A stretch of 64,000 nucleotides of DNA from positions 1 to 64,000 of the IMG/VR virus record IMGVR_UViG_3300033148_003679; one strand, written 5' to 3'. Below, piece by piece: positions 3,677 to 63,692 of this stretch. The stretch is from a virus. Numbering within the stretch: the stretch's first letter is position 1; every line of letters starts with the position of its first letter. The position numbers and the translations under genes are program-made. Below the pieces are notes generated by a model. That model was not told where the DNA came from. It saw only the letters and a list, made by a program, of their open reading frames with translations, and ran no database searches.

Positions 3677-3988
3677 TTACCTCACATAAACCCGTAAATA
3701 TGCAAACCCTGCATCACGTACCTTATGCCATGATATGATCGAATGCGTTGTACTGTCAAAAGTTAGTTTGTCGTCCATGTCAAGAGTTCTGTCCTCGATC
3801 TCTACCACAGCGTTACTTATAGCTTCGTTCCCTTTGTTATCGATTACTCGCCGATACTTATATTCAATTCGTCCTTTTAACGATACATCTGTGCCAGCAT
3901 CAGTTACAGTACCCCATTTATCTCGTGTAGGTTCTGGAGTAAGTATCACAGTATCCCTGAAATATGAACTGCGTGGACTGCTAGCCAT
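3677..3988 (-). CDS. Head-closure / head-tail joining protein
   Basis: 103 aa, small and beta-rich, starting MASSPRSSYFRDTVILTPEP. The pattern of an N-terminal strand, a central RIEYKYRRVID strand and a C-terminal strand ending in Arg fits head-closure proteins of the SPP1 gp16 / minor-capsid group. Its first eight bases overlap the stop of a glycosyltransferase-like gene, so translation of this virion protein is coupled to the inserted sugar cassette. Assignment rests mainly on length and order. Confidence 0.62.
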   Translation of the reverse strand: MASSPRSSYFRDTVILTPEPTRDKWGTVTDAGTDVSLKGRIEYKYRRVIDNKGNEAISNAVVEIEDRTLDMDDKLTFDSTTHSIISWHKVRDAGFAYLRVYVR

Positions 3989-4700
3989 TAAAATCCAATC
4001 CCCATGTAAACCCCATCATTGCTCTATGCTTTGCAAATTCTAAATCTTTTTTCACAATCGGTTTTCGTCTTTCATATTCCGCATCTTGCATACCAACATG
4101 TATCTCAGGACTATAATAGTCTACTATAGCATTTTTGTCTAGGGTAAACTTCGTCGGTGAAAAACTTTGGGCAAACCGTAAAAACTCGTTATGGAAATAG
4201 TTGTACTTATATGTAGGGCAAATAAGCTCTCTATCCTTATATCTGTCAAGAAACTTGTTGCCGATAAGAATAACTCTGGCCGGGTGGAATGTCGGGACAC
4301 AGAACTGTCGGATACCTACAATTCCGTCATAATCGGGATATTGAGAAAGTAGAGTTCTGTACGCGTGAGAAATGGCTGCATATTTAAATTCTACCAGCTC
4401 AGACGATAAAAGAAGATGTTCTCCAGCTTTTCTAGCATTTTTCGCAGCTAGATTATATGCGCCAACAATGCCCCAGTGTAAGTATGTACAGTCCAGAGAG
4501 AATTTGGGGTCGTTTGCATACAGCTTTTCAGCCCATTTCACTGCACGGTTACCAGATTTACCACCCACGCTTATAATGTTGACAAGAAAGCTGAAATCGA
4601 CCGGAACCGTCCATGGCAACGAATAAATTGCTCTCTGTAACATATCGTTTCTGTTACGAGTAGGAATTGCTATCCGAATTCGTCTCTCGATCTGTGCCAT
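3981..4700 (-). CDS. Glycosyltransferase-like protein (GT2-type N-terminus)
   Basis: 239 aa. The N-terminus IRIAIPTRNRNDMLQRAI has the pattern of family 2 glycosyltransferases: a hydrophobic strand, a short TRNR loop, then a helix ending in a Ser-Leu turn. A clear DxD is not visible, so donor binding may be unusual. The C-terminus is rich in Lys and aromatic residues. It is the last gene of the ten-gene sugar cassette and overlaps the head-closure gene by eight bases. The substrate is unknown; a sugar on a virion or host-surface acceptor is an inference. Confidence 0.55.
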   Translation of the reverse strand: MAQIERRIRIAIPTRNRNDMLQRAIYSLPWTVPVDFSFLVNIISVGGKSGNRAVKWAEKLYANDPKFSLDCTYLHWGIVGAYNLAAKNARKAGEHLLLSSELVEFKYAAISHAYRTLLSQYPDYDGIVGIRQFCVPTFHPARVILIGNKFLDRYKDRELICPTYKYNYFHNEFLRFAQSFSPTKFTLDKNAIVDYYSPEIHVGMQDAEYERRKPIVKKDLEFAKHRAMMGFTWGLDFNG

Positions 4701-4701
4701 T

Positions 4702-5352
4702 TTATTCCATTACGTTACCTGTCATCCAATATCTGGGTTTTCTGGTTTTTGCAAAAGATTTGTCTGGTGGCGGTGAAATTTTTAGTAAATCCCATACCGG
4801 TGCCAGTGTTTCGACAGGAGATTCCACCATTCTATCGTAACTTATAAACACTCCTCGGCCCGGGTTGTCAGAACAGAATTGGTTCCATTTTGCATTGTTA
4901 TGTATCCAGAACCATTCGTAAGGTTCAAACGGAACAACGCTACGCTGATAATCTTTGTCTTCGTTCCAATAACTGGCATGGTTATCCCACACGTTTCGGC
5001 CAATAAACACAAACTGTGCTTTCGGAAACACGTTGTTCAGACATATCCATTCCATACCTTTCACACCGGGATTGATAGCGAACTTTGCACCAAACCGTCC
5101 TTTATACAGACGTACCATTTCGCTAAACGTTTCTATAGGCCCGGTTACATGAGGAGTGTTAGCCAGACGTTGAAGCTGTGTTACAATCACCGCATGGTAT
5201 AATACATGAGGTTCAAACAATATATCATGTATGTCCGACGAGTCCATTATAAGTCTGCGCAAAAAGGATGTACCGGCTCTACGCATACCCACTATAAATA
5301 TAGGACTAATATCTTCTATTGGTTTCAGAAATGTTCCGCCCATGGGTTTCAT
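4702..5352 (-). CDS. Sulfotransferase family protein
   Basis: 216 aa. The 5' phosphosulfate-binding loop is clear at about residues 20-33 (FIVGMRRAGTSFLRRLI). A 3'-phosphate motif follows near residue 120 in VFIGRNVWDNHASYW, with the Arg and Ser positions expected. Family knowledge: transfers sulfate from PAPS to a hydroxyl or amino group, often on a sugar. It lies in an operon of glycosyltransferases, so a glycan is the likely acceptor (inference). It begins behind a GGAGAAA ribosome site. The length is near the lower limit for the family. Confidence 0.82.
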   Translation of the reverse strand: MKPMGGTFLKPIEDISPIFIVGMRRAGTSFLRRLIMDSSDIHDILFEPHVLYHAVIVTQLQRLANTPHVTGPIETFSEMVRLYKGRFGAKFAINPGVKGMEWICLNNVFPKAQFVFIGRNVWDNHASYWNEDKDYQRSVVPFEPYEWFWIHNNAKWNQFCSDNPGRGVFISYDRMVESPVETLAPVWDLLKISPPPDKSFAKTRKPRYWMTGNVME

Positions 5353-5364
5353 AACATTTTTCTC

Positions 5365-6132
5365 CTATCTAATTTCATGTTCGTCTTTCGGGAACCGCCA
5401 TAATCCACGACATATAAAATTGTCACGAACGAATTGGTTGCGAACCTGATTAAACCCTTTCTGGTTATGTAGCGCATACGAATCACCTTCTTCGTCCGAA
5501 TTATGCCATTTAGTTGCGGGTACAACATACATTTTACAGTCAGTATTAAACCGTGAAAGTTGGCGAACCCACCACAAATCGTCTAACAACCTGTTACATC
5601 CCGACATATCCGTGATAAAGTTTCTGCGAGCACCGAAATATAAACGACCTATAAAGTCTACTCGACCTATATGGGTGACTTTTGTAGCTGGCCCGTTCTT
5701 AAACTTTTTTCGAGCAGTGTAAAAAGTCTGGACGAGTTCCTGCATCTCGGCATCTTTGTCCTGGCGAATCTGATAATCTTTACCGAAAATCGAGACTATT
5801 TTCTCGTTTACAGGATAAGGAATACTGTTCCAATAAAATAGCAACTCGTCTACAAACCCTTCTTCCGGCACTATATCGTCATCTGCTATAAGTACAAGCT
5901 CGTTTTTGAGTAATATAGGTGCCATAAACTTGATCTGACCGCCATAGTTTTTGTTACCGGCAACTATCGTAATCTTATTGTTGGCAAACAGAGACAGATC
6001 GGGTTCCCATTCGCCAATAGAATTGTCCCATATCAGAAGTTCGTCTATTTGTGGCAACCATGCGTCGATAATCGCAGGAAGCGAATCAAAACGTTTATAC
6101 ACAGGAATTAAAAGAGAGATGTTGTTATCCAT
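5365..6132 (-). CDS. Glycosyltransferase, GT64/GT2-like
   Basis: 255 aa. Its N-terminus (ISLLIPVYKRFDSLPAII) and the motif LVLIADDDIVPEEGF, with three Asp for metal and nucleotide-sugar binding, mark a GT-A fold enzyme like the exostosin/GT64 group. A later Trp-His element (ATKWHNSDEEGDSY) may be the acceptor end. The start overlaps the end of the oxidoreductase gene by eight bases. Donor and acceptor sugars cannot be told from sequence. Confidence 0.72.
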   Translation of the reverse strand: MDNNISLLIPVYKRFDSLPAIIDAWLPQIDELLIWDNSIGEWEPDLSLFANNKITIVAGNKNYGGQIKFMAPILLKNELVLIADDDIVPEEGFVDELLFYWNSIPYPVNEKIVSIFGKDYQIRQDKDAEMQELVQTFYTARKKFKNGPATKVTHIGRVDFIGRLYFGARRNFITDMSGCNRLLDDLWWVRQLSRFNTDCKMYVVPATKWHNSDEEGDSYALHNQKGFNQVRNQFVRDNFICRGLWRFPKDEHEIR

Positions 6133-7159
6133 GATCTGTTTTGCTTTTTACCTCATTTAAGTTACATGTATCCGCGATAATTTTAGTTACTTCAACTGCT
6201 GTTGCAAGATTTGACGTACAGCAGGTAGAAAATCCCAGTTTTGCGTTTGTAACAATTCCACGAAAATAATTGACTGTATTAACCAGGTTATCGGCCTCGT
6301 TATAATAAAACGTCTCTTTCTCTTTAACCAGAAGAGGATCATTATTATTTCTTATTTGTCTGACAAAACGTGTTACGTTAAGAGACTCGTCTTTTTCCAT
6401 ACAATATTCCATGTTACCCGCCGTACCGAAAATCTTAACACCCATATATTTTGCGGGATATTCTATGGAAGCACAAAGCTGGCCGATAACACCACTGGAC
6501 AACAGAGAACGGAATCGAATAATACCTGTGTCAGATATAGAGTTGGTGTCAGTAGATACAGGCGAAAAAACAGGTTGGAAATCAATAGCTTTTATGTCTA
6601 CAAACATGTTAAGAACAGAGACAAGATGAGCGAATTTAGATGAGAGTAACTGGTTGACCGAAAAGCCTATACGTCGTGACGGGGTTACACGTCTCATTAA
6701 ACTCATCTCTATATAATTTAGTGTACCGATTTTGTTGCGTTTGTATAATGTGGCAGCTTTCTGTAAACCGGGCGAAAAGGTGTATGTAAAGTCTACTACC
6801 AGTTGTAACTCGTTCTGTACGGCTATGTCTCTTAACCGTTCGGCTTCTGACGGGACTAGAGCTAGCGGTTTTTCACATAGTACGTGTTTTCCGGCATGTA
6901 AAGCGTCCAGAACAACATTATAATGAGCGTCTATAGGCGTCGCTACAACTACAGCTTCTACATCTTTATCGTCCCATATGGTGGACAAATTGTTTATAAA
7001 ACGTCCTTCTGGTACTAACGACCGGCCAAACACATATTTGACGTCAAATCGTTCGTCCAGATACGGAAGAATTCGTGTACCCCAATATCCGTAACCAATA
7101 AGAGCTATTCGAGGAGTTGAATTGATTATGTTAGACAGAGGTCTTTGCGTCTGGCCCAT
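6125..7159 (-). CDS. Gfo/Idh/MocA-family NAD(P)-dependent sugar oxidoreductase
   Basis: 344 aa from the ATG at 7159, which has a GGAGA site eight bases upstream; an earlier ATG would overlap the preceding gene by about 80 bases. The Rossmann motif IALIGYGYWGTRIL is at the N-terminus and the family signature HVLCEKPLAL is near residue 105. Family knowledge: oxidises or reduces a sugar or nucleotide-sugar ring carbon. In this cassette it probably makes an unusual sugar, for example a keto or amino precursor. It could also act on a lipid or peptide-linked sugar. Confidence 0.8.
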   Translation of the reverse strand: MGQTQRPLSNIINSTPRIALIGYGYWGTRILPYLDERFDVKYVFGRSLVPEGRFINNLSTIWDDKDVEAVVVATPIDAHYNVVLDALHAGKHVLCEKPLALVPSEAERLRDIAVQNELQLVVDFTYTFSPGLQKAATLYKRNKIGTLNYIEMSLMRRVTPSRRIGFSVNQLLSSKFAHLVSVLNMFVDIKAIDFQPVFSPVSTDTNSISDTGIIRFRSLLSSGVIGQLCASIEYPAKYMGVKIFGTAGNMEYCMEKDESLNVTRFVRQIRNNNDPLLVKEKETFYYNEADNLVNTVNYFRGIVTNAKLGFSTCCTSNLATAVEVTKIIADTCNLNEVKSKTDHG

Positions 7160-8315
7160 ACCGATCTCTCCATGCGTTATTGATCTCGACTGCACATCTG
7201 TTACACCGTCCATTGTTCAGAAAACATATATCCGGGTTCCAGTTAGGTGACTGGTTGAGTTTGACCTGGTGCATAAACTTATCCATATCATCAGTAACTT
7301 TACCCAGTCTGTTAAATGCCATAGACGGAGACGCACAACTCGAACATCTATATACATATCCATCTGCCCCTAAAGTTATCTGGAAATAGCCGAACAGACA
7401 TTGTTTGTAGTTCATCTGGTCAATATCCTGCGCTTCTGGTGCGATCCAGAATATGAAAGGTTTGTCAGTAGCGTTTTCTGACAGGTACGGTTTAACCAGA
7501 TTGTAGTATGGAACCCGCATAGGTATTTCAACCTTCTTCTTATATTCGCGTACTTTATCAAAATCTCTGTTATAATTGTCATAAGGAATCGAGAACCGTA
7601 AAGAGTCTACACCGATTTCTTTTGCAAGTCTTACAATATTCTCAACCTCTTCCCTCGAACTGTTCCATTCGTTGAACAGGTATACAATACGCAGTTTCGG
7701 GAACGGTTTATCGCCCCGAATATCCGTAAACATTCTTAACCCGTCAATAATAGTATGAAAATGGTCGTGGTCTAACTGTTTACTAATCATATGGCTTTTC
7801 GCAAACCCAGCGTCAAGAGAACAGCTAAAATAATCTTGTGGCGAATCCGACAGTTCAACGTATTCTGTCATCAACCCTTGTTTTTGTTCCAGCTCAACCA
7901 GTTTCGACCCGTTAGAATGGCATCCGAAACAAGAACCGGTTTCTTTTGTTAACCGCATCAACGGCATAAGATCAGGGCTAAGAGTCGGTTCCGTATATTG
8001 GCCGCCTACAACAATAAACGGGATTCTACCGTCTAGCTGTCTGACTAACGAAAACATTTGGGGTATCCATGCAGTGTCTAATGTCTGTTGAAAATATCTG
8101 CCCTGACAATGCCGACAATGAAAGTTGCACCCCCGTCTACCGTCGCCCGGCAAATGAACGTCAAATTGACGCGGATAAATAACTTCGTCTTTAAACACGC
8201 GGTCGAAGTTACCGCCTAGATATTCTTTTAACAGTTCAAAATAATAGTAGCCTGACAATCCGTCATTGTCCGGTCGTTTAGTATCTATACTCATTACAAA
8301 ATCTTCTACTTTCAT
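7131..8315 (-). CDS. Radical SAM protein with Cys-rich C-terminal domain
   Basis: 394 aa. The CX3CX2C cluster is present at Cys63, Cys67 and Cys70 (RGCNFHCRHCQGRYF), followed by a glycine motif (VVGGQYTEPT). The C-terminal 90 residues hold at least six Cys in pairs (CSSCAS; CFLNNGRCNRC), a SPASM/twitch-like layout that would bind one or two extra Fe-S clusters. Family members modify peptides or carry out radical chemistry on sugars. The start overlaps the upstream stop as ATGA. In this operon a sugar or a virion-protein modification is the likely target (inference). Confidence 0.78.
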   Translation of the reverse strand: MKVEDFVMSIDTKRPDNDGLSGYYYFELLKEYLGGNFDRVFKDEVIYPRQFDVHLPGDGRRGCNFHCRHCQGRYFQQTLDTAWIPQMFSLVRQLDGRIPFIVVGGQYTEPTLSPDLMPLMRLTKETGSCFGCHSNGSKLVELEQKQGLMTEYVELSDSPQDYFSCSLDAGFAKSHMISKQLDHDHFHTIIDGLRMFTDIRGDKPFPKLRIVYLFNEWNSSREEVENIVRLAKEIGVDSLRFSIPYDNYNRDFDKVREYKKKVEIPMRVPYYNLVKPYLSENATDKPFIFWIAPEAQDIDQMNYKQCLFGYFQITLGADGYVYRCSSCASPSMAFNRLGKVTDDMDKFMHQVKLNQSPNWNPDICFLNNGRCNRCAVEINNAWRDRYGPDAKTSV

Positions 8316-9106
8316 TTCTCTGTTTCCTTACATAGAGCTGCACGTTGTTCTCGTTTCTGTGCCCATAACTTATTATCGCCAACCAGACGTTTGTTTTTCA
8401 CGTCTTTAGACATCTCGTTTATTGTCGCGCCATGTTTATGATAGACAAAAGAGTTAAAACATACCGCCGTTAGATAACCTGCTGCATGGACTTTATCGTT
8501 CATGTCGCCGTCACCTCGCCGGAACAAAAACCGTTTATCGTATCCGCCCAACTCGTCCCATACTATACTTTTGCGCATAAGAGAACAGAATCCGGGTACA
8601 ACCAAACGGTTAGTTTTCAAGGCACTGTCAATTGTATACACTTTGGTCGGTAGACTATGAAAAAAACGTTCAGGATCTTGTTTGCCATCATATCCCACAT
8701 ATTTCCCGGCTGCTCGATGTCCGCAAATGCCACTCATTGTATCGGCTACAGACGAGATAATCGCAATCTTGTCATTGGTATTTATGCCGGTTATAAGTCT
8801 GGTAAGCCAGTCGGGAGTAACCATAACATCATTATTCATTAACACAAAAAGGTCAGACCGAACTTTTGACATTCCAAAATGAACGGTAGGTCCAAACCCC
8901 CTATTTTTAGGGAACATATAAAATTCATGTATAGAAGGGCGGAAAGAGTTTAGAAGAGACCGCACTTTTTCTATACCATTTTTGTCAGGAGTACCATCGT
9001 CTATAAGTATAATACGGAAATCCCGTGTATATTTAACAATACTTTTCAGGCATTTAACGCTACAATCTATTGTCAGATATTGTGGAATCAAAATGTCAAT
9101 GGTCAT
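8312..9106 (-). CDS. GT2 family glycosyltransferase
   Basis: 264 aa from the ATG at 9106, which overlaps the end of the FkbM gene by eleven bases. It shows the full GT2 pattern: IDILIPQYLTIDCSVKCL, then RIILIDDGTPD, then a nucleotide-binding NNDV in the VLMNNDVMVTPDWL segment. A later aromatic-rich loop and the motif RRGDGDMNDKVHAAGY correspond to the catalytic base region (ED/GD). It resembles rhamnosyl- and N-acetylglucosaminyl-transferases of O-antigen clusters. The specificity is unknown. Confidence 0.83.
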   Translation of the reverse strand: MTIDILIPQYLTIDCSVKCLKSIVKYTRDFRIILIDDGTPDKNGIEKVRSLLNSFRPSIHEFYMFPKNRGFGPTVHFGMSKVRSDLFVLMNNDVMVTPDWLTRLITGINTNDKIAIISSVADTMSGICGHRAAGKYVGYDGKQDPERFFHSLPTKVYTIDSALKTNRLVVPGFCSLMRKSIVWDELGGYDKRFLFRRGDGDMNDKVHAAGYLTAVCFNSFVYHKHGATINEMSKDVKNKRLVGDNKLWAQKREQRAALCKETEK

Positions 9107-9842
9107 CGATTTCTGCCCGTTTACATAAGATTGAAACATGTCGTTCCGTACCAACCGCATTCTTTTCTATTAACCAGTCATTTGTTTTTGGTTGCATATC
9201 ATGTATATAACTGATAGTAAATCCCGAATCCCTTATAAACTGCAACATCTCTACAGGATCGTCTTCTGCGAGAACGATTAGAGACGGAAAAAACTCCATT
9301 ATCATAAATTCGATGTTGTTAATTTGTTCATCTAACCCTTTTAACGCTTTGAACTCATATCCTTCAATATCAAGTTTCAACAGCTTTATACTTGTATTCT
9401 GTGGTATGACTTCGCTACTTTTCTTTATCTCGACATCTGCCGATGCCATCCGTGGATCCCGTTTTGACAGACAATGAGCACCTTTGTTCCGCAGATCAAT
9501 GTAAAGAGTACCAGACTTGTTTGTATCCGAAACAGCACATCTAATTATCTTTACGTTCTGATACGGCAACATCGCAACGTTCGCTGTCAGAACTTTACAA
9601 TTTTCGGTTTCCGGTTCAACAGCATATACCATTCCTGTTTCTCCGACAGCGCGTGCCATTTCACATGTATGGACACCTATATTTGCACCGAAATCTATAC
9701 AGACGTCACCTTGTACTAGTATACTGTGCATAACCGCGTTTTCTTCTATTTCATACCCTCCTTTGTTTTTAACCTGTACAGAGACTATAGTATCTTTATC
9801 GTGTATCCAAAAATCGTTACCAAAAGATTTAACTTTTTCCAT
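9096..9842 (-). CDS. FkbM family SAM-dependent methyltransferase
   Basis: 248 aa. Motif I is VCIDFGANIGVHTCEMA near residue 50, and the FkbM signature is LLKLDIEGYEFKALKG near residue 140. The length matches the family. FkbM enzymes O-methylate hydroxyls on polyketides or on sugars, and in surface-sugar clusters they usually cap glycans. The end overlaps the next gene. O-methylation of the glycan built by the neighbouring transferases is the best inference. Confidence 0.85.
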   Translation of the reverse strand: MEKVKSFGNDFWIHDKDTIVSVQVKNKGGYEIEENAVMHSILVQGDVCIDFGANIGVHTCEMARAVGETGMVYAVEPETENCKVLTANVAMLPYQNVKIIRCAVSDTNKSGTLYIDLRNKGAHCLSKRDPRMASADVEIKKSSEVIPQNTSIKLLKLDIEGYEFKALKGLDEQINNIEFMIMEFFPSLIVLAEDDPVEMLQFIRDSGFTISYIHDMQPKTNDWLIEKNAVGTERHVSILCKRAEIDDH

Positions 9843-10531
9843 TATCGCTTTGCTTTTCTCTGTTTATACGTCTCATTCCAAACTTTTTCGTATAACGTAT
9901 ACCTTTCTACTCGCGACCCTCGATAGATAGCACTTTTCCCTTTTGCACAAGGTAAATGCCGCCACGCAGAAGACGGAACAACATATTTCGGAACGTCAGG
10001 CCAACATATATTACCTAACCATATATCATCTCCGGTTCGTACCATTCCACGGGTATCAAGATTCTTTAATACCCATCGTGGACACATGAACGTTATACCA
10101 ACCATGTCAACTTCTACAGGCTCTTTAACCCTACTCGATCTAAATCCTTTTGTGTTACCATCATATCGCGGCCCTTCAAACTGACGACCCATTACCGATA
10201 CAAATACATTATCGCCTAGATCATGGTAATGTTTATACATATCTTTTACCAAACCCGGTAGCGGTTCCATATCATCGTCAGCAAAAATCAGAAGGTCACC
10301 GTCTGTAGCGTATGCCATTGCATAATCGCCACGAGTATGTATACTTTTAGGTACTCGTATATGTTCTACACGAGGGTCAGACGTATCGAACTTTGCGCCG
10401 TTTCCGCCGTCAACAACCCATATTTGATCTACAGGCTGATCTCTCCATCCTTTAACTGCACGGTCAAGAGTCTCGTACCGTTCAAGATGATATGTATTAA
10501 AAAGTACACTAATAGTTTTACCGTCAATCAT
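9842..10531 (-). CDS. Glycosyltransferase with DDD motif
   Basis: 229 aa. It has a GT-A layout: a strand SVLFNTYHLERYETL, then IWVVDGG, and a metal-binding DDD in DLLIFADDDMEPLPGL at about residue 85. A short acidic loop (RTGDDIWLGN) may supply the catalytic base. It overlaps the next downstream gene by one base (TAATG), so translation is coupled. It resembles the 5365-6132 gene in its motif set, and the two may be distant paralogues. Confidence 0.7.
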   Translation of the reverse strand: MIDGKTISVLFNTYHLERYETLDRAVKGWRDQPVDQIWVVDGGNGAKFDTSDPRVEHIRVPKSIHTRGDYAMAYATDGDLLIFADDDMEPLPGLVKDMYKHYHDLGDNVFVSVMGRQFEGPRYDGNTKGFRSSRVKEPVEVDMVGITFMCPRWVLKNLDTRGMVRTGDDIWLGNICWPDVPKYVVPSSAWRHLPCAKGKSAIYRGSRVERYTLYEKVWNETYKQRKAKR

Positions 10532-11472
10532 TGTCCTAGAGCCTCCAGAATCTTTTTACATCGATGTGTATACGTATAGTTGTTGAGCACATGTTTTCGG
10601 ATAGACTGTCGTAACTGCTTTCTTAACACAAGATTGTTGCGCAATTCATTAACCTTATCCGCTGTCTCTTCTCTATTATACGAGAACAATACATGTTCAC
10701 CATCTACAAACTCGTTTTCAATACCATCTACATATTCGACCACACATGCACCACCAGCAGCACCCATAAGATAGATTCTGTTACTCCAATAGTTCTGGAC
10801 GCCATATTCAGGTTTTGGCACATAAACTGCCGATGATTGAGCACATATCCGGGTTAACTGGTTACCGAATACACGGCCATGGAATGTTGCCAAGGGTGCC
10901 ATTGCACGACATTTCGTAACTCCACAATATAATGCGTTAAATCGGGTTGATAGGTATTGGAACGTTTCTGTCCTGTTATAACCAGTTCTGAGCATACCTC
11001 CAAACATCACATCGTATTGTGGTTCCATATCGTAATCGGGAGTTATAGAGAAATCTGTTTCGTCTACACCTTGCATTAAATGCAAATATCGTTTAACATA
11101 TTTTTCCCATGGTATAGAATGGTCTGTTGTAGCCACCAGATCCCAATACTGTGCCATTTTCATGAGACCATTATATAATTCTTCTTTTTGCCATCCGTAT
11201 TTAGGATTAAGACAGTCAAAAGTCCATAACACCAGTTTTGCGTCATCTCTCTTTTTCCGTACTATTTCTGCAACCTTATCCGCGTTCCGTGGTTTCAAGA
11301 TACTATGCGCACTAAAAATAATGTCAAATTGACGTATATCGCTAACAGGCTTTTCTACATCACAACAAAAGACTTCATGACCGAGATTTCTAAAAGCATC
11401 GGCTACCCGATATTCGTTTAGTCGTCTAATCCCACCACTTTTTCTCTCTTCTGCACTAATTAGTATTCGCAT
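10528..11472 (-). CDS. GT4/CgeB-like glycosyltransferase
   Basis: 314 aa. The GT-B N-terminus begins MRILISAEERKSGGIRRL. The C-terminal domain holds the usual nucleotide-sugar binding end (IYLMGAAGGACVVEYVDGIE, then the GEHVLFSYNREETADKV element) found in CgeB-like and DUF3880-linked transferases. The C-terminus ends in a long helix. Family members transfer sugars to spore-coat or protein acceptors. The start overlaps the upstream gene region within the tight cassette. Confidence 0.75.
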   Translation of the reverse strand: MRILISAEERKSGGIRRLNEYRVADAFRNLGHEVFCCDVEKPVSDIRQFDIIFSAHSILKPRNADKVAEIVRKKRDDAKLVLWTFDCLNPKYGWQKEELYNGLMKMAQYWDLVATTDHSIPWEKYVKRYLHLMQGVDETDFSITPDYDMEPQYDVMFGGMLRTGYNRTETFQYLSTRFNALYCGVTKCRAMAPLATFHGRVFGNQLTRICAQSSAVYVPKPEYGVQNYWSNRIYLMGAAGGACVVEYVDGIENEFVDGEHVLFSYNREETADKVNELRNNLVLRKQLRQSIRKHVLNNYTYTHRCKKILEALGQ

Positions 11473-11508
11473 TTTAGTGTAACCGTATTTTCTTTTCCTG
11501 TTTGCCTG

Positions 11509-12312
11509 TCATGTAGCATTTCTATGTCGAAACCGATTATCTCTAAACTCCCAATCCGGTTTTAGTAAAGTATCTTGTCGTAATACCCCATATTCATGAA
11601 GTATCTGTGCAATTCTGTCTGGATCAGTAATGTCAGCTTCAGAAGTTAGTTGCCGGGGCGAATAACTCGTAGGATTTTTACTCTGCTTTAACTCTCTGGT
11701 ATTCGTACCGTGTTTAACAACACACACCTTGTTTTTGTCCGGTAACATTTCAGTACCAAGTAGTCTGCGCATAGGAGCGGCATGTGCTACAAATGCCGCC
11801 TGTTTAAACTTATCCCAGTCTTTGTACATATCTTTAGAAAAAATACGAGTTGTAAACGGTGTTGGCAACTTACGTATATGTTTACCAATAAACCCGTAGT
11901 TTCTATCCCATAAAAGGTTCTGACCGAAACTAAACGACGCGACTTTATCAACACGTTTTTTACGTTCAGAAAGGTCTCGTATAGTCTGGAGTGTAGACAA
12001 ATGGTATAGATCGTCGGAATCCAGACGTGAAATTGTAAGCCAATCATCGTCTATTTCATAAGTACGTTGTTCACCTCTATCGAATATCAGTTCTACTTTC
12101 CTGTGCCAAGGTAGCTGTGCAACATAGTCTCTGTTATTTTTGTCGCATACAACCCATAAATCGAAATCGTCATGGTACTGGTTTAGAATCGAACGTAACG
12201 TGAATTTCTGGAACAAATCGAATCGAATATCTATCCATTGATGACTTTTTATTATAGGGCCGCCGTGTATATATCGGTCAATCGCAAACAAGATCATTAT
12301 TACATGTCGCAT
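11509..12312 (-). CDS. Putative rhamnosyltransferase-like glycosyltransferase
   Basis: 267 aa. It resembles the putative rhamnosyl transferase family (PF11316-like): an N-terminal helix and WIDIRFDLFQKFTLRSIL, then a DLWVVCDKNN strand, then the donor-binding RLDSDDLYHL. This DSDD is the best support. The remaining C-terminal 130 residues have no motif I recognise. It lies between the MptE-like fusion and the CgeB-like gene and is part of the cassette. Confidence 0.68.
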   Translation of the reverse strand: MRHVIMILFAIDRYIHGGPIIKSHQWIDIRFDLFQKFTLRSILNQYHDDFDLWVVCDKNNRDYVAQLPWHRKVELIFDRGEQRTYEIDDDWLTISRLDSDDLYHLSTLQTIRDLSERKKRVDKVASFSFGQNLLWDRNYGFIGKHIRKLPTPFTTRIFSKDMYKDWDKFKQAAFVAHAAPMRRLLGTEMLPDKNKVCVVKHGTNTRELKQSKNPTSYSPRQLTSEADITDPDRIAQILHEYGVLRQDTLLKPDWEFRDNRFRHRNAT

Positions 12313-12319
12313 TTTATTT

Positions 12320-13606
12320 CTATCTACTCCTTTTTAACCGTCTACTAGCTTGAAAGTGTTTAACAACAGGATTCGACACCAGACTATCCATAATTTTGTC
12401 AATAGCAAGGTATTCTGGCGGTAACCCTACAGTATTTACTCTGTTTCTGCTCTCTAAAACGTCTCGTAACGCAAGCTGGTTGCCGATATTGGGATATTCT
12501 TTATCTTTTTCGACCCATTGTTTAACAATTTCGATAGATTCTGCTTGTCTGTTACCAAAAAATACCGTACCGGTTCCAGGTTCGTCTGGCTTCTGTTTTC
12601 TATGGGGAATGTCACTAGCATTTAACCAATAAACAGCTACAGATGGTCTGGAAAGGCACAATCTATCGAACATCTCTGGATATTGGACAATTTCAGCGTC
12701 AGAATCCAGCCATACAACCGGTTTATCATGGAATTTGTATAACATTTCGAGTATAAACCGAGTTTTCTCCTTTATATTAGCAGACCACGAACCTTTACTA
12801 GGCCGACCTTCGATATAATGTTCCAGTCCAAACAGGTGTAACGATTTATGTAACCGTCCGATCTCGTTCTCATATCCATTATCAATAGTATAATACGATA
12901 TTACCATAGGTCGCTCGATCCTGTCAATTCTTTCCTGTTCCCATGTCGAACGCCGGAACGATTCCAGTGCACTGTCAGGATTGAGATTGACAATTTCCGC
13001 CCGTTTGTTTATATCTTCTTCTACAACTTTAAACGCTTGTCTAAATTTACAATACACTTTGTCTTTTTGTGGCCATTTATATCCAGAATGGAAATTAGCT
13101 TGTGCCCCGTCTTTACCAACCATATCGAATCCCAACAAATAGATAGGGGACGCGCCCAGACATAGAGCGAGGTTGATCGCGCCAAACCCCGTATTTTCTC
13201 CGTTTCCGAGACCGTCTTTTAACGAACGCGGCATACACCTATTTTTCTGGTGCCGTTTTATAGTATAACAGTATGGAGTCGGTGCAGGAGTTTTTCCGCT
13301 CTGGAGGTATAGACAATATCCGCCAAAAGCTCTTATTTTGTTACGAGCAGCAACAGATCCTTCTATATCTTTAGGGTCGATTGCGCCTTTATCAGTCTCA
13401 ATAAAAACACGATCATCCTGTGCAATTATAATAGACGGGTCACAGTATTCATGAGCACGGTTAATAGCAATAACAAGTTCACCGTTTAGTTTCGACCAGT
13501 CAAAAGTTTTAAGAGACAGACCGCCACCTACTACAAAACAACGGTGCCCAGTCCATATACCGTCTTTTACATAGTCGATAAACTGAACGCTTTTTCCCTT
13601 ATCCAT
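12320..13606 (-). CDS. MptE-like (DUF115) domain fused to a glycosyltransferase
   Basis: 428 aa, two domains. Residues 1-210 resemble the MptE/DUF115 Rossmann-like group: FVVGGGLSLKTFDWSKLNG, then INRAHEYCDPS, and later NLALCLGASPIYLLGFDM with an aromatic cap. Residues 215-428 form a second domain with MVISYYTIDNGY, a long helix and PVVWLDSDAEIVQYPE, where DSD looks like a GT-A metal site. In bacteria MptE-like domains occur with flagellin or glycan modification. Two steps of one pathway on one chain is a reasonable inference. It is the first gene of the cassette, 25 bases from the head-tail adaptor gene. Confidence 0.68.
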   Translation of the reverse strand: MDKGKSVQFIDYVKDGIWTGHRCFVVGGGLSLKTFDWSKLNGELVIAINRAHEYCDPSIIIAQDDRVFIETDKGAIDPKDIEGSVAARNKIRAFGGYCLYLQSGKTPAPTPYCYTIKRHQKNRCMPRSLKDGLGNGENTGFGAINLALCLGASPIYLLGFDMVGKDGAQANFHSGYKWPQKDKVYCKFRQAFKVVEEDINKRAEIVNLNPDSALESFRRSTWEQERIDRIERPMVISYYTIDNGYENEIGRLHKSLHLFGLEHYIEGRPSKGSWSANIKEKTRFILEMLYKFHDKPVVWLDSDAEIVQYPEMFDRLCLSRPSVAVYWLNASDIPHRKQKPDEPGTGTVFFGNRQAESIEIVKQWVEKDKEYPNIGNQLALRDVLESRNRVNTVGLPPEYLAIDKIMDSLVSNPVVKHFQASRRLKRSR

Positions 13607-58602: not shown

Positions 58603-59343
58603 ATGAACTCAAAACCACTTACAAGACAAGAAGTTCTTGCTGTCGTATGGTCTAAAAAATATGGAACACGGAGCGATTTTCGAGGGAGAAATCTGCGGGG
58701 AATTGACTTATCTTATGGAAATTTGAGTTATATTGATTTACAACAGGCAGACTTATGCAATGCAAATTTACGAAACGTTAACTTGTATAAAGCAAATTTG
58801 CGCAACGCAAACTTACAGTATGCTAATTTACGATACGCCACATTACAGCATAGTCATTTGTTTAATGCCGATTTATTTAATGCAAATTTACAAAATGCAA
58901 ACTTGCAATGTGTCAACTTGCAAGATGCTATATTGCAGTACGCCAATTTATCCGGTGCCAATTTGAGTGGTGCTAAAGGGTTACTAGATTCAAGTACATT
59001 TTTGACAAAACATTTTGCTTCGGACGATTTTGGTATAATTGTATACAAAATCTTTGGCAGAATGTTTTATTCTAAACCAGATTATTGGCAAGAAAAAATC
59101 GGGGCTGTAATAGAAGAGGTCGTAGATTCGTGCCGTACTATAGATTGTGGATGCGGGATAAACTGTGCAACATGGGAATGGTGCCAGATTCTTAAAGCGT
59201 GGAGGGATACAAGGATGATAGATACAAGGATATGGAAATGCAGGATTCGATGGATAGATTTGGCTGATGTTGTTGTGCCGTATAATACAGATGGAAAGAT
59301 ACGGTGCGGTAGATTAGAGTTGATTGAAAGAGTTGGGATGTGA
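58603..59343 (+). CDS. Pentapeptide-repeat protein with C-terminal DUF5758-like domain
   Basis: 246 aa. Residues 25-125 are a run of A(N/D)LxX pentapeptides (DLSYGNLSYIDL; NLRNANLQYANL), forming a right-handed quadrilateral beta-helix. The C-terminal 120 residues start DDFGIIVYKIFGRMFYSK, resembling DUF5758. Pentapeptide proteins mimic DNA or protect gyrase in some cases. Here the substrate is unknown. Starts exactly at the stop of the previous gene. Confidence 0.78.
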   Translation: MNSKPLTRQEVLAVVWSKKYGTRSDFRGRNLRGIDLSYGNLSYIDLQQADLCNANLRNVNLYKANLRNANLQYANLRYATLQHSHLFNADLFNANLQNANLQCVNLQDAILQYANLSGANLSGAKGLLDSSTFLTKHFASDDFGIIVYKIFGRMFYSKPDYWQEKIGAVIEEVVDSCRTIDCGCGINCATWEWCQILKAWRDTRMIDTRIWKCRIRWIDLADVVVPYNTDGKIRCGRLELIERVGM

Positions 59344-59885: not shown

Positions 59886-60098
59886 ATGAGCAAACCGAAA
59901 CCAGAAGAGACGTTGAGCGACGGGACGGTCGTGGTGCTTGAGGGTTACACATGGCGTAGAGCTTTGTACGATGATGGTTATGGTGCGCTACGAATCGACG
60001 AACAGGCTGCGGAATCGGCATGTGATGCAGACGAACAAGTTGTAGAAGTCTGGGTAGCAAAGGCAGAGGCGAATGAAGAGAAGGAGGCAGAGACATGA
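59886..60098 (+). CDS. Small acidic protein
   Basis: 70 aa with GAAGGAGAGAACG. Contains DGTVVVLEGYTWRRALYDDG and a Glu/Ala-rich tail. Not recognised. Confidence 0.52.
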   Translation: MSKPKPEETLSDGTVVVLEGYTWRRALYDDGYGALRIDEQAAESACDADEQVVEVWVAKAEANEEKEAET

Positions 60099-60469
60099 AG
60101 ATTAAAGAGGGATTAGACGCGGATTGGCAACAATACGTTGAAGTTAATAGCGATCTTTATGGATCTGCTACTGTACAGTATGCTCAACGGTGGGCAGAAC
60201 TGATGGAAGAACGAATGAGTGCCGGTGAATCCATCGCAGAGGGAATGGCTAAAGAAACTTCGCATGCGGCAGATACGGATGGGATTACAGTTTTTATGTA
60301 TGGTGCCGCTGTAAGTATCTTGTCCCATTTCTGGGAGTACGGAGAAGAGTTGCGGCAATGGCATAACCTTTCCACTCAAATTGGTGATGAGGGCGAGAAA
60401 GCGAATGAAGATGGAGAGGTTTTGAATCCAGCGTTGTTAAGTTTTGGAAAGGCAAACGCGAGCAAGTAA
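60095..60469 (+). CDS. Hypothetical protein
   Basis: 124 aa overlapping the previous gene by one codon (ATGA). Helical, DADWQQYVEVNSDLYGSATV. Acidic. Ribosome site GAAGGAGGCAGAG. No family recognised. Confidence 0.55.
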   Translation: MKIKEGLDADWQQYVEVNSDLYGSATVQYAQRWAELMEERMSAGESIAEGMAKETSHAADTDGITVFMYGAAVSILSHFWEYGEELRQWHNLSTQIGDEGEKANEDGEVLNPALLSFGKANASK

Positions 60470-60481
60470 GGAGATCGAGAA

Positions 60482-61039
60482 ATGAAGAAGTCGAAAGTTG
60501 TAGTGATAGGTGTTGCAGTTCTGGTTGGAGCGGTGCTTGGATTTGGCTGGGCGTGGCTGCCGGGCGGGTTGGAGTATCGGGCTGCCCAGGCGCAAGCCGA
60601 ACCAGAGTTGCCGGCCAACACGAAACTGACAAGTCAGGCGGTCGATATTGTCGTTCGGGTCGCTGCCGATCTGTCAGCCCGATATGACGTCGATAAAGTC
60701 AACATCTATGTTCAGCCGCTCGGCGGCGACTGGGAACTGATATACACGGAAGAAAACGTGTTGCCAGGCGATGAGGTGCCGTTTACCGTCAATATGGCTG
60801 AAGGTACAGTCTGGTTGGTTGGCGCGACGTTGGTTGACCCCGCAGGCAAAGAAAGTGTGATGAAAGGTACATTGCGTTATCCCGGACAAGACGAGCCTCT
60901 GTACCTAGAATGGGACACGACTCCGCCGCCAGCACCTGATGTACTGTTACTTGGCTCGGCAGACGTGAACGGCGACAAGTTTGTGAACGCTATTGACATC
61001 CAGCTTGTAATCAACGCGGTATTGGGATACGTTGCGTAA
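60482..61039 (+). CDS. Secreted protein with a C-terminal dockerin-like half-domain
   Basis: 185 aa. Residues 1-39 are a signal peptide: a basic start, a hydrophobic core (VVVIGVAVLVGAVLGFGWAW) and a cut after AQAQA. A beta domain follows (residues 45-140). The C-terminal 26 residues, ADVNGDKFVNAIDIQLVINA, carry the dockerin calcium loop DxNxDxxxxxxD and helix; only one of the usual two. Dockerins dock to cohesins in extracellular complexes. Phage dockerins are rare, so this may be a captured host gene. Confidence 0.72.
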   Translation: MKKSKVVVIGVAVLVGAVLGFGWAWLPGGLEYRAAQAQAEPELPANTKLTSQAVDIVVRVAADLSARYDVDKVNIYVQPLGGDWELIYTEENVLPGDEVPFTVNMAEGTVWLVGATLVDPAGKESVMKGTLRYPGQDEPLYLEWDTTPPPAPDVLLLGSADVNGDKFVNAIDIQLVINAVLGYVA

Positions 61040-61073
61040 AAGAATTTAAGAGAAGTGCGCGAAAGGAATAAAA

Positions 61074-61244
61074 ATGAAACCATATCTGTTGGACGATGAA
61101 CCTGTAACATCAAATGAGCTTATTGACGCTGCAAGGCGAATTGATCCCGTCTTCGGTCAAGATGGATTTCTAACAACTTCTGGTGCCGCACGCATACTTA
61201 GAAGTGCTGGCTATGAAGTAGAAGAAAACGAGAGGCACACATGA
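61074..61244 (+). CDS. Small conserved phage-like protein
   Basis: 56 aa behind GAAAGGAATAAAA: MKPYLLDDEPVTSNELIDAA then GQDGFLTTSGAARILRSAGY. A helix-turn-helix-like two-helix protein common in phage genomes (by pattern). Function unknown. Confidence 0.65.
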   Translation: MKPYLLDDEPVTSNELIDAARRIDPVFGQDGFLTTSGAARILRSAGYEVEENERHT

Positions 61245-61246
61245 AC

Positions 61247-61318
61247 GGAATAGACACCGATAAACATAGCGGCGGTTGACATCCAACTCGTAATCAACGC
61301 TGCACTGGGGTACGCGTA
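61247..61318 (+). pseudogene. Dockerin relic 1
   Basis: After the 56-residue gene the DNA resembles the dockerin end: GTTGACATCCAACTCGTAAT then CAACGCT(G), giving AVDIQLVINAALGYA in one frame, but the calcium loop is out of frame (N-G-I-D-T-D) and 7 bases longer. No start or ribosome site. It is a decayed copy of the end of the 60482 gene. Confidence 0.6.
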
Positions 61319-61415
61319 AATAATGATTCTGTTTTACGAACAATGGTGACCGGCTTCGCCAACTGACGTTCACATTAGACTGAACCCGTTGTTCGCGCAT
61401 AAAAAGGAGAGACTC

Positions 61416-61895
61416 ATGATGCGGTATATCATAACGCAAGCGCATCTTGACGCTGCTCGAAACGCACATGCATGCGAGTCCAGGCTGAACCTATACCATG
61501 CTGGCGACAACCTGTTTGACAAACTGACGTACGACGATGCGGTTTGGATTGAAGATAATTTGCCGGGCAATGCAAAATCGATATTGAATGCTTTCGGCGT
61601 ACCGCTTTACGCTATGGCGCGCGACGGCTGCGGCTACGGCCACGGTTACGGCTACGGCGACGGCAATGGCTATGGCTATGGTTACAGCTCCGGCGACGGT
61701 TACGGCTACGGCTATGGCTATGGCTACGGCGACGGCTCCGGCTCCGGCTCCGGCGACGGTTACGGCTACGGCTATGGCGACGGCTACAGCTCCGGTTCCG
61801 GCTTCGGTTCCGGCTTCGGCCACGGCTCCGGCTCCGGCTACGGCTATGGCGACGGCTATGGCGACGGCTACGGCTATAGCTACTGCGACAATTAA
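61416..61895 (+). CDS. Gly/Tyr-repeat protein, copy 1
   Basis: 159 aa from ATG 61416 behind AAAAAGGAGAG. Residues 1-70 form a helical head (RYIITQAHLDAARNAHACES; LFDKLTYDDAVWIEDNL; ending PLYAMARDG). Residues 70-159 are a low-complexity run of GYG, GDG, GSG units, probably disordered or adhesive. Nearly identical head to the 62297 gene. A dockerin relic follows the stop. Confidence 0.65.
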   Translation: MMRYIITQAHLDAARNAHACESRLNLYHAGDNLFDKLTYDDAVWIEDNLPGNAKSILNAFGVPLYAMARDGCGYGHGYGYGDGNGYGYGYSSGDGYGYGYGYGYGDGSGSGSGDGYGYGYGDGYSSGSGFGSGFGHGSGSGYGYGDGYGDGYGYSYCDN

Positions 61896-61935
61896 CATCG
61901 GGTTTGTGATCAACGCGGTGCCGGGATGGGTATAG
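61896..61935 (+). pseudogene. Dockerin relic 2
   Basis: Just after the copy-1 stop, the +1 frame reads TINIGFVINAVPGWV. ATCAACGCGGT is exact to the dockerin end of the 60482 gene. Lies out of frame with the Gly/Tyr tail. Confidence 0.55.
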
Positions 61936-61994
61936 GCGACACGTTGGATGATAATGTTGTTGGACGAAACAAAACGAACATGAGGAGACAAACG

Positions 61995-62291
61995 ATGACT
62001 AACAAAAAGAGACATGTAATTGTGACCACAGACTCTAGCCGACGAGGGGTATTTTTCGGAACGCTCAAATCGGGTGATGTCGGTAGCCCGGTAGAGTTGA
62101 CAGATGCTCGGATGATCGTCTATTGGTCTGCCGCCACACATGGGGTACTTGGCTTGGCGGCGACAGGCCCGGCAGATGGGTCGAGAGTGGGGCCCAGTGT
62201 ACCACAAATCCGGCTCGATGGTGTAACGGCGATCATCGAGTGTACACCAGAAGCTGTTGCACGATTTGCAAGCGGTGAACTCTGGAGTTGA
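61995..62291 (+). CDS. DUF6948-like conserved phage protein
   Basis: 98 aa from ATG 61995 behind GAGGAGACAAACG. VIVTTDSSRRGVFFGTLKSG, then LTDARMIVYWS and LGLAATGPADGSRVG, then IIECTPEAV. This matches a widespread phage protein whose role is unknown to me. Confidence 0.65.
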   Translation: MTNKKRHVIVTTDSSRRGVFFGTLKSGDVGSPVELTDARMIVYWSAATHGVLGLAATGPADGSRVGPSVPQIRLDGVTAIIECTPEAVARFASGELWS

Positions 62292-62296
62292 AAACG

Positions 62297-62662
62297 ATGA
62301 TGCGATACATCATAACGCAGGCGGATATTGACGCTGCCAGAACAGCACGTGCATGTGAAAATAGACTGAACCTATACCATGTTGGCGACGATCTGTTTGA
62401 CAAGCTGACGTATACAGATGCAGTCTGGATCGAAGATAAATTGCCGGACAGTGCAAAAACGATATTGAATGCTTTTAGCGTACCGCTTTACGCTATGGCG
62501 CGCGACGGCTGCGGCGACGGCTTCGGCTACGGCGACGGCTCCGGCTTCGGCTTCGGCTATGGCTACAGCTCCGGTTCCGGCTTCGGCTCCGGCTTCGGCT
62601 ACGGCTACAGCGACGGTTCTGGCGACGGCTTCGGCCACGGCTACGGCAGCGGCGACAATTAA
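62297..62662 (+). CDS. Gly/Tyr-repeat protein, copy 2
   Basis: 121 aa from ATG 62297, behind CTCTGGAG. The head RYIITQADIDAARTARACEN, then LFDKLTYTDAVWIEDKL, is about four-fifths identical to copy 1. The Gly-rich tail is shorter (about 45 residues) and Phe replaces many Tyr. Tandem duplication with tail divergence. A dockerin relic follows its stop. Confidence 0.65.
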   Translation: MMRYIITQADIDAARTARACENRLNLYHVGDDLFDKLTYTDAVWIEDKLPDSAKTILNAFSVPLYAMARDGCGDGFGYGDGSGFGFGYGYSSGSGFGSGFGYGYSDGSGDGFGHGYGSGDN

Positions 62663-62702
62663 CATCGGGTTTGTGATCAACGCGGTGCCGAGATGGGCAT
62701 AG
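62650..62702 (+). pseudogene. Dockerin relic 3
   Basis: GCGACAATTAACATCGGGTT then GTGATCAACGCGGTGCCGAG: near-identical to relic 2 and overlapping the end of copy 2. Reads TINIGFVINAVPRWA in another frame. Confidence 0.55.
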
Positions 62703-62981: not shown

Positions 62982-63145
62982 TAACTTTTGCAGCCAGCGG
63001 CGGCGCGATGGCGCGTCGGTAAGGGTATGCGCTCTTGCTATCAGGATTAGTGGTGCGACGACAGCCCATGTAAAGGTCGGAAAAGGCGTATACGTGAAGG
63101 GAAGTACGGTGGGGTAACCGTACCTGCTGGCCGCGCATGAAAGGA
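62982..63145. repeat. Intergenic repeat element, copy 1
   Basis: TAACTTTTGCAGCCAGCGG at 62982-63000 and CCTGCTGGCCGCGCATGAAA at 63123-63142. CAGCCAGC and GCTGGC are complementary, so the element can form a long hairpin or bubble; internal GC-rich. It sits between the 62717 and 63151 genes. Confidence 0.6.
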
Positions 63146-63150
63146 AACGG

Positions 63151-63324
63151 ATGATGATACAGACATTGAACGGAGTTTTAATTCCCGAAACCATAGCTGA
63201 GGCAGAGTTTCTATATGATGGGACAAACGATATTTCCGATCTCGACAATCCCGACAAGACATCTGCCGAGGCCGTAGCAAGACACCTTGCAGAACAAAAG
63301 GCAAAATACGGAATAAGAGACTGA
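63151..63324 (+). CDS. Small hypothetical protein
   Basis: 57 aa, MMIQTLNGVLIPETIAEAEF then an acidic loop and a helix ending KAKYGIRD. Ribosome site GAAAGGAAACG. It lies between two intergenic repeat elements. Confidence 0.55.
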   Translation: MMIQTLNGVLIPETIAEAEFLYDGTNDISDLDNPDKTSAEAVARHLAEQKAKYGIRD

Positions 63325-63328
63325 CCAT

Positions 63329-63407
63329 GCGGCCAGCGGCGATCTGGCATGTAGCACAATTCTAGATCGATGCTTGGCCAGATTCCTGCTGGCCGCGCAT
63401 GAAAGGA
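63329..63407. repeat. Intergenic repeat element, copy 2
   Basis: GCGGCCAGCGG at 63329 and CCTGCTGGCCGCGCATGAAA at 63385-63404, the latter identical to copy 1. ATGCGGCCAGC pairs with GCTGGCCGCGCAT. Followed by a leader like that of the 62717 gene. Confidence 0.6.
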
Positions 63408-63411
63408 TGAG

Positions 63412-63636
63412 ATGATGAGAAGAGATTTGATATTCAAAGTGCATGAGACTTGCCGAGATAAAAAATATCCAGGCGTAGCTGATCTTTTCGCTTTCAACGA
63501 AACTATTGATGCTGGGATTGGCAGTGCTTATACTTCAGTAACAATGGATCTTCTTGAAGATCTTGATACTGAACTTGCCACAAGAGTTATGGCTGGAGAG
63601 ACAATAAGATGTCGATTGGAAATTGTAACTGACTAA
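63412..63636 (+). CDS. Small hypothetical protein
   Basis: 74 aa, with GAAAGGATGAG before it. MMRRDLIFKVHETCRDKKYP, then acidic helix MDLLEDLDTELATRVMAG. Not recognised. Confidence 0.52.
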   Translation: MMRRDLIFKVHETCRDKKYPGVADLFAFNETIDAGIGSAYTSVTMDLLEDLDTELATRVMAGETIRCRLEIVTD

Positions 63637-63652
63637 CTTTTGCAGCCAGTGG
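63634..63652. repeat. Intergenic repeat element, copy 3 (partial)
   Basis: TAACTTTTGCAGCCAGTGG, one base different from copy 1. It overlaps the end of the preceding gene. Confidence 0.55.
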
Positions 63653-63692
63653 CAACGTATAAACTCAACGCGGCAAAAGAGGGGTGTACAGA

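What the first reader, a model, noticed from the sequence alone, without database searches (positions are those of the whole stretch)
60955..62702. Repeated dockerin-end relics follow several genes in the right-end array
Seen: one intact dockerin half (ADVNGDKFVNAIDIQLVINA) at the end of a secreted protein, and three decayed copies (61247, 61896, 62650) after other genes, sharing DNA such as ATCAACGC. The relics 2 and 3 are out of frame. Inference: a dockerin-coding tail served as a repeated homology segment for gene shuffling or duplication.
Basis: seen in the sequence. Interest (0 to 1): 0.75.

Follow-up and report, generated by a model that had tools for sequence, protein, structure and literature searches.

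The report
Phage half-dockerin gene and its ghosts
A virus that probably infects the uncultured bacterial phylum Hydrogenedentota carries a gene for a small exported protein ending in half of its host's protein-docking tag, and behind three neighbouring genes lie the decayed 3' ends of similar genes, apparently scars of dockerin genes that were overwritten.

Summary
The window is part of an 84,323-base tailed-phage record. Four copies of a dockerin-coding 39-mer (60993, 61276, 61892, 62659) are the four best matches in the whole record, both to the intact tail and to the tail of a related phage; chance gives at most 26 of 39, the copies score 28 or more.

The inference is only partly supported. 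In each case the preceding gene (a 56-aa gene and two glycine-rich 'GYG' genes) takes its stop codon, out of frame, from inside the relic. Relic 1 differs from the intact tail by 5 synonymous changes of 6, so it descends from another working dockerin gene. In a related phage the same GYG gene ends in the relic of a different neighbour. The relics look like scars of overwritten genes; nothing shows that they mediated shuffling.

More interesting is the intact gene. Four phage contigs encode exported proteins of about 165-185 aa with a probable beta-sandwich and one C-terminal dockerin repeat. The exact motif occurs only in Candidatus Hydrogenedentota (8 of 8 hits among 84,980 species), where cohesins and two-repeat dockerins are widespread. 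I infer, untested, that the protein docks on host cohesins.

The parts
60482..61039 (+). Intact gene: predicted exported protein of 185 aa (N-terminal hydrophobic helix, beta-sandwich, PPPAP linker, one dockerin repeat at the very C-terminus)
   Evidence: Pfam Dockerin_1 above its cut-off, second half of the profile only. AlphaFold model: helix 3-25, seven strands 53-142, helix 170-181, low confidence overall.
60959..61036 (+). Half-dockerin coding tail of the intact gene (ADVNGDKFVNAIDIQLVINAVLGYVA)
   Evidence: Sequence.
61074..61244 (+). 56-aa gene whose TGA stop lies inside relic 1; no relatives found, no obvious export signal
61240..61319 (+). Relic 1: remnant of a second dockerin gene (encodes DIQLVINAALGYA out of frame with the preceding gene)
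   Evidence: 33/39 identical to the intact tail; 5 of 6 codon changes synonymous.
61416..61895 (+). GYG1: gene with a conserved 73-aa N-terminal region and a long Gly-X repeat; TAA stop lies inside relic 2
61887..61935 (+). Relic 2: dockerin-tail remnant, out of frame with GYG1
   Evidence: 29/39 to the intact tail and 29/39 to the related phage's tail.
61926..62291 (+). DUF6948 gene; next to a GYG gene in both this phage and its relative
   Evidence: Pfam PF22253 72.7 bits; synteny with L039.
62297..62662 (+). GYG2: second copy of the GYG gene; TAA stop lies inside relic 3; orthologous by position to the GYG gene of L039
62654..62702 (+). Relic 3: dockerin-tail remnant; homology with relic 2 ends at its TAG, after which a leader GCATGAAAGGATGAAATGATG begins that is shared with the next intergenic repeats

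Best explanation
This is the early-gene array of a tailed phage that most likely infects Candidatus Hydrogenedentota. Its intact gene makes a small exported protein with a beta-sandwich body and a single host-type dockerin repeat at its C-terminus; I infer that the repeat lets it dock onto host cell-surface cohesins, where it may mask or modify the surface (for example to exclude other phages). The three relics are the 3' ends of further dockerin genes that once stood at the same place. Other small genes (the 56-aa gene and the GYG genes) were joined onto them by recombination at gene ends, out of frame, each taking its stop codon from inside the old tail; the GYG copy with its scar was then duplicated. 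Shown: homology, junction positions, frames, synonymous pattern of relic 1, the relative's different scar, the four-phage family, the host motif. Inferred: overwriting as the mechanism, the host, cohesin docking and its purpose.
For: Four tail copies far above chance. Relic 1 differs from the intact tail by 5 synonymous changes and 1 other, so it diverged while still coding for a dockerin. The stop codon of the preceding gene lies inside the relic in 3 of 3 cases, and the GYG gene of relative L039 likewise ends at an out-of-frame remnant of the neighbouring coil gene's tail (36/45 identical). L039 has, at the same place, its own exported half-dockerin gene, DUF6948 and GYG. Two further phages, L057 and L056, encode the same architecture; L039's contig and L056's carry phage capsid, tail or tape-measure genes. 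Motif VNA[IVM]DIQLVINA: 8 of 8 hits in Hydrogenedentota. In that phylum dockerins occur in 56 of 68 genomes and cohesins in 58 of 68. All 21 host C-termini examined have two repeats, all four phage proteins one. Most host repeats share A at position 10 and V, I or L at 11 with the phages; PMC8063739 names these positions as specificity determinants.
Against: No Hydrogenedentota genome carries a relative of the phage terminase or of GYG, so the host rests on the dockerin motif alone. One repeat may not bind a cohesin: known dockerins use two. The structure model is poor (mean pLDDT 55.6) and the fold matches are weak (best E 0.004). Overwriting was not seen directly: no intermediate phage with an intact dockerin gene at the position of relic 1, 2 or 3 was found. 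The start of relic 1 aligns only loosely.
Confidence: 0.58

Rival explanations
1. One reading: the dockerin tail is a short repeated homology segment through which genes in the array recombine, shuffle and duplicate.
For: Tails sit exactly at gene ends. GYG1 and GYG2 lose homology just after the tail's stop. Relics 2 and 3 are closer (2/49) than the gene bodies (34/220). Other gene-end repeats exist in the array.
Against: Relics 2 and 3 came with a gene that offers far longer homology of its own. Relic 1 behaves like an independent dockerin gene. L039 has the same GYG junction with another tail and no dockerin relic. No recombinant across the tail was seen.
Confidence: 0.2
2. The 56-aa gene and the GYG genes once encoded dockerin-tagged proteins; frameshifts or small deletions cut the tags off.
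For: A 14-nt deletion would turn the intact DNA GGCGACAAG...TTGAC into something close to the relic GGCGACAATTAAC (sequence). A Gly-rich linker before a dockerin is plausible.
Against: Neither protein has an obvious export signal, and a dockerin tag is useless inside the cell. The GYG gene of L039 ends in a remnant of a different gene.
Confidence: 0.1
3. The relics are functional: a transcription terminator or RNA element, or an alternative C-terminus reached by +1 frameshifting inside the GYG repeat.
For: Relics 2 and 3 are 96% identical, more than the gene body. The +1 frame is open from the repeat through the tail in both copies.
Against: Predicted RNA folds are no better than shuffles (z -0.87, -0.18, -0.17) and no terminator-like site lies there. 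A GGCNNC repeat is open in all frames anyway. The two differences between relics 2 and 3 both change the residue in the tail frame. L039 lacks the tail.
Confidence: 0.06
4. Chance resemblance of GC-rich sequence.
For: Region is GC-rich and repetitive.
Against: Best chance match 26/39 in 300 simulated genomes, against 28-33 observed at three sites; an independent tail finds the same sites.
Confidence: 0.01

Closest known systems
Type I dockerin (Pfam PF00404) of cellulosomal and non-cellulosomal cohesin-dockerin systems
   Same: Calcium-loop residues D-N-D...D, recognition positions A-V/I, C-terminal position, score above the Pfam cut-off for this phage and L039.
   Different: Only one of the two repeats is present; carried by phages on a small exported protein with no recognised enzyme domain. 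Truncated dockerins in Ruminococcus flavefaciens were suggested to act by a single-binding mode (PMC2930009).
Two-repeat C-terminal dockerins of Candidatus Hydrogenedentota
   Same: Each host repeat (e.g. ADVNNDGVVNAIDIQLVINAALG) is nearly identical to the phage half.
   Different: 21 of 21 host C-termini have two repeats, the phages one; matches are mostly limited to the tail region, not the phage protein's body.
Promoter early stem-loops (PeSL), the mobile regulatory cassettes of T4-type phages
   Same: Repeated short segments between small genes at places of gene shuffling (concept as cited in PMC4503421).
   Different: The dockerin relics have no hairpin and no recognised promoter; they are decayed coding ends. 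The GCGGCCAGCGGC...GCTGGCCGC elements next door are a closer parallel in form.
Illegitimate recombination at gene boundaries in mosaic tailed phages
   Same: Junctions at gene ends with truncated remnants of a neighbour (general knowledge, not tested).
   Different: Here the same gene family left several remnants and supplied the stop codons of the newcomers.

Membership tests
Type I dockerin (PF00404) | Profile score above the curated cut-off | tested here: met
   25.4 bits (window) and 26.3 bits (L039) against 22.9. L056 20.1 and L057 14.0 fall below it.
Type I dockerin (PF00404) | Two tandem F-hand repeats | tested here: not met
   Only profile 35-57 or 30-57 (or 2-23, 2-20) matched; one repeat in all four phage proteins.
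Type I dockerin (PF00404) | Calcium-binding loop residues intact | tested here: met
   D161, D165, N169 and D172 invariant in the four phage proteins; third loop position N or D. The loop is absent or broken in the relics.
Type I dockerin (PF00404) | Protein is exported | tested here: inconclusive
   Hydrophobic N-terminal helix and AQA-like site by eye, helix 3-25 in the model; no signal-peptide predictor available.
Type I dockerin (PF00404) | A cohesin partner binds it | not testable with these tools
   Cohesin domains are present in 58 of 68 Hydrogenedentota genomes; binding needs an experiment.
PeSL-like mobile regulatory cassette | Stem-loop in the repeated segment | tested here: not met
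   Relic folds no better than shuffles.
PeSL-like mobile regulatory cassette | Early promoter in the repeated segment | tested here: not met
   The only plus-strand sigma-70-like site near the tails is at window 60883-60911, inside the intact gene's body; none falls in a relic, and counts equal shuffles. Other promoter types are not covered.
Diversity-generating retroelement target | Reverse transcriptase in the phage | tested here: not met
   No PF00078 match in the 84-kb record; controls ring. The record may be incomplete.

The most novel reading that the evidence does not exclude
Phages of Hydrogenedentota encode a family of exported half-dockerin proteins that hijack the host's cohesin-dockerin surface system by single-repeat docking, as surface masks or superinfection-exclusion factors. 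The locus is a turnover site where successive dockerin genes are gained and overwritten, leaving readable ghosts.
Probability: 0.33. Interest if true: 0.75.

Novelty: new variant of a known kind. Interest (0 to 1): 0.55.

Why it matters
I found no dockerin in 50,697 annotated phage genomes with the queries used and saw no paper on phage-encoded dockerins in the library searches. If the half-dockerins bind host cohesins, phages exploit a bacterial surface-docking system in an uncultured phylum, the single-repeat protein is a natural test of whether half a dockerin suffices for docking, and the motif becomes a handle for assigning phages to Hydrogenedentota. The ghosts give a fossil record of how small phage genes replace one another at gene ends.

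Tried and rejected
Chance similarity: rejected. Relics as terminators, promoters or structured RNA: folds and site counts at shuffle level. Diversity-generating retroelement with the tail as a homing site behind the variable GYG repeats: no reverse transcriptase, and the variable codons are mostly single-step neighbours of TAC, not A-specific changes. In-frame dockerin tags lost later: kept as a rival, weak. GYG or terminase relatives in Hydrogenedentota: none in 68 genomes, though an empty answer has no positive control. Early scans with single-sequence queries and exact DNA patterns in viral contigs found no dockerin relative; the two-sequence alignment then found L039's contig, L056 and L057. 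PHROGs and NCBIfam gave no informative match. The N-terminal region of GYG could not be modelled with confidence.

Full report
WHAT WAS CLAIMED AND WHETHER IT IS THERE. The window belongs to a virus record of 84,323 bases with tailed-phage genes such as a terminase, which matches terminases of known phages at about 25-30% identity. At 60482-61039 an ORF of 185 aa ends in ADVNGDKFVNAIDIQLVINAVLGYVA; Pfam calls this Dockerin_1 above its cut-off but only over the second half of the profile. Three further copies of the tail's DNA lie at 61276, 61892 and 62659. In an ungapped scan of the whole record, the intact 39-mer finds the four sites with 39, 33, 29 and 28 matches; the next best site has 23, and the maximum in 300 simulated genomes was 26. 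The tail of a related phage, used as an independent query, finds the same four sites first with 28-29.

ANATOMY OF THE RELICS. Relic 1 begins at the end of a 56-aa gene; the gene's stop codon TGA is part of the relic's GTGAACGG-like start, out of frame with the dockerin reading. Relics 2 and 3 follow two copies of a gene with a long Gly-X repeat (GYG1, GYG2); their TAA stops lie inside the relic's ATTAACATC. So in all three cases the newcomer gene stops inside the old tail. Relic 1 and the intact tail differ in six of twelve aligned codons, five of them synonymous. Neutral decay does not do that: the sequences diverged while coding for a dockerin, so relic 1 is the end of another dockerin gene. 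Relics 2 and 3 carry several residue-changing differences from both known tails (D to N, Q to G, L to P), as expected of a decayed piece. They differ from each other at 2 of 49 bases, against 34 of 220 in the gapless part of the gene body (Fisher p = 0.036); this hints at later copying of the 3' end, but the numbers are small. None of the relics folds better than shuffled sequence.

A RELATED PHAGE. IMGVR_UViG_3300033149_002282 (L039, with L058/L059) carries DUF6948 followed by a GYG gene, collinear with the window over 677 nt at 75%. Just upstream stands an exported half-dockerin gene of its own (1432-1971), 75% identical to the window's over the 24-residue tail but weakly similar in the body. 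Behind its GYG gene there is no dockerin relic. Instead there is an out-of-frame remnant of the tail of a neighbouring coiled-coil gene (36 of 45 identical), and the GYG stop codon lies at the start of that shared stretch. The same thing has therefore happened with another gene family: GYG ends are fused to whatever tail stood there. This is why I read the relics as scars rather than as a dedicated shuffling signal.

THE INTACT GENE IS A PHAGE FAMILY. A scan with the two tails found two more viral contigs, L057 (3300033141_003386) and L056 (3300037247_000117). Each encodes an exported protein of 164-175 aa (179 aa if L056's upstream start is used) with the same plan: hydrophobic N-terminus, beta-rich body, linker, one dockerin repeat at the C-terminus. 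The fetched parts of these two contigs show no DNA similarity to the window. L056's contig carries tape-measure and tail genes and L039's a capsid and minor tail protein; L057 carries RecT and a DnaC-like loader. The L056 body resembles a bacterial Ig-like domain (Big_13, 18.9 bits, below cut-off). The AlphaFold model of the window protein is poor overall (pLDDT 55.6) but its middle is a seven-strand sandwich at about 60-78; PDB matches are weak and include several fibronectin type III domains.

HOST. The pattern coding for VNA[IVM]DIQLVINA was scanned over one genome for each of 84,980 species. All eight hits are Candidatus Hydrogenedentota. In that phylum 56 of 68 genomes have dockerins and 58 of 68 have cohesins above the Pfam cut-offs, against 2 and 1 of 14 control genomes. 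All 21 distinct host C-termini examined have two repeats, whereas each phage protein has one. The phage alignment matches host proteins mostly over the tail only. The host is thus likely but rests on this motif; no Hydrogenedentota genome carries the phage's terminase or GYG.

HOW IT MOST LIKELY WORKS. The phage protein is exported during infection and, through its half-dockerin, attaches to cohesin-bearing surface proteins of the host. Positions 10 and 11 of a dockerin repeat, named as specificity determinants in the literature (PMC8063739), are A and V/I in all four phage proteins, as in most of the host repeats. A truncated dockerin acting by a single-binding mode has been suggested for Ruminococcus (PMC2930009). 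Masking or remodelling the cell surface, for instance against superinfection, is my guess at the purpose. The locus turns over: dockerin genes have stood here repeatedly and were overwritten by other small genes that borrowed their ends.

OTHER REPEATED JUNCTIONS. The array has at least two more kinds of repeated gene-end segment: a GC-rich inverted-repeat element behind relic 3, and a segment around GAAGAGCGGAAAGGTCATAACGATGAGCGAACA at 65908, 67808 and 68308. The PeSL cassettes of T4-type phages are the nearest published parallel for the stem-loop elements (cited in PMC4503421), not for the dockerin relics.

LIMITS. One close relative only; low-quality models; the host is inferred; no binding test; viral-contig scans were exhausted, so the family may be larger.

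Noticed in passing
window 62989-63157, 63320-63417, 63634-63655 (partial); L004 5-148, 391-434, 577-605 (record 64005-64148, 64391-64434, 64577-64605): A second family of intergenic repeats with terminal inverted repeats GCGGCCAGCGGC...GCTGGCCGC, ending in a leader like GCATGAAAGGATGARATGATG just before a start codon; one copy folds into a strong hairpin (z -3.99). Its core is absent from L039's contig, L056 and L057.
   Followed up: partly
L004 1900-1940, 3800-3840, 4300-4340 (record 65900, 67800, 68300): Three otherwise different genes share the same 3' end and the start of the next gene (GAAGAGCGGAAAGGTCATAACGATGRGYGAAYA), a third kind of repeated gene junction.
   Followed up: partly
window 60095-60469; L004 9258-9725 (-): A Tad4-like gene (Type I Thoeris inhibitor, Pfam 106.6 bits) directly upstream of the dockerin gene, and a second, similar-looking protein on the other strand in the right part of the record.
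   Followed up: no
window 61416-61895 and 62297-62662; L039 2683-3159: GYG proteins: a conserved N-terminal region of about 73 aa followed by a Gly-X repeat in which X is almost always Tyr or a single-base neighbour of its codon (Asp, Ser, Phe, His, Asn, Cys). No relatives found outside these two phages.
   Followed up: partly
window 58603-59343: Pentapeptide-repeat protein gene (Pfam 96.4 bits) in the same array, possibly a DNA mimic.
   Followed up: no
L004 5406-6095; L039 3479-4099 and 5020-5740: A family of paralogous proteins (LAWHFL..DRRLG..DGRLV) with low-complexity, Ala-rich C-terminal repeats, again varying mainly at the 3' end.
   Followed up: no
window 3981-13606 (-): A run of about ten glycosyltransferase-, methyltransferase-, sulfotransferase-, oxidoreductase- and radical-SAM-like genes among the structural genes, unusual for a phage of this size; judged by eye only.
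   Followed up: no
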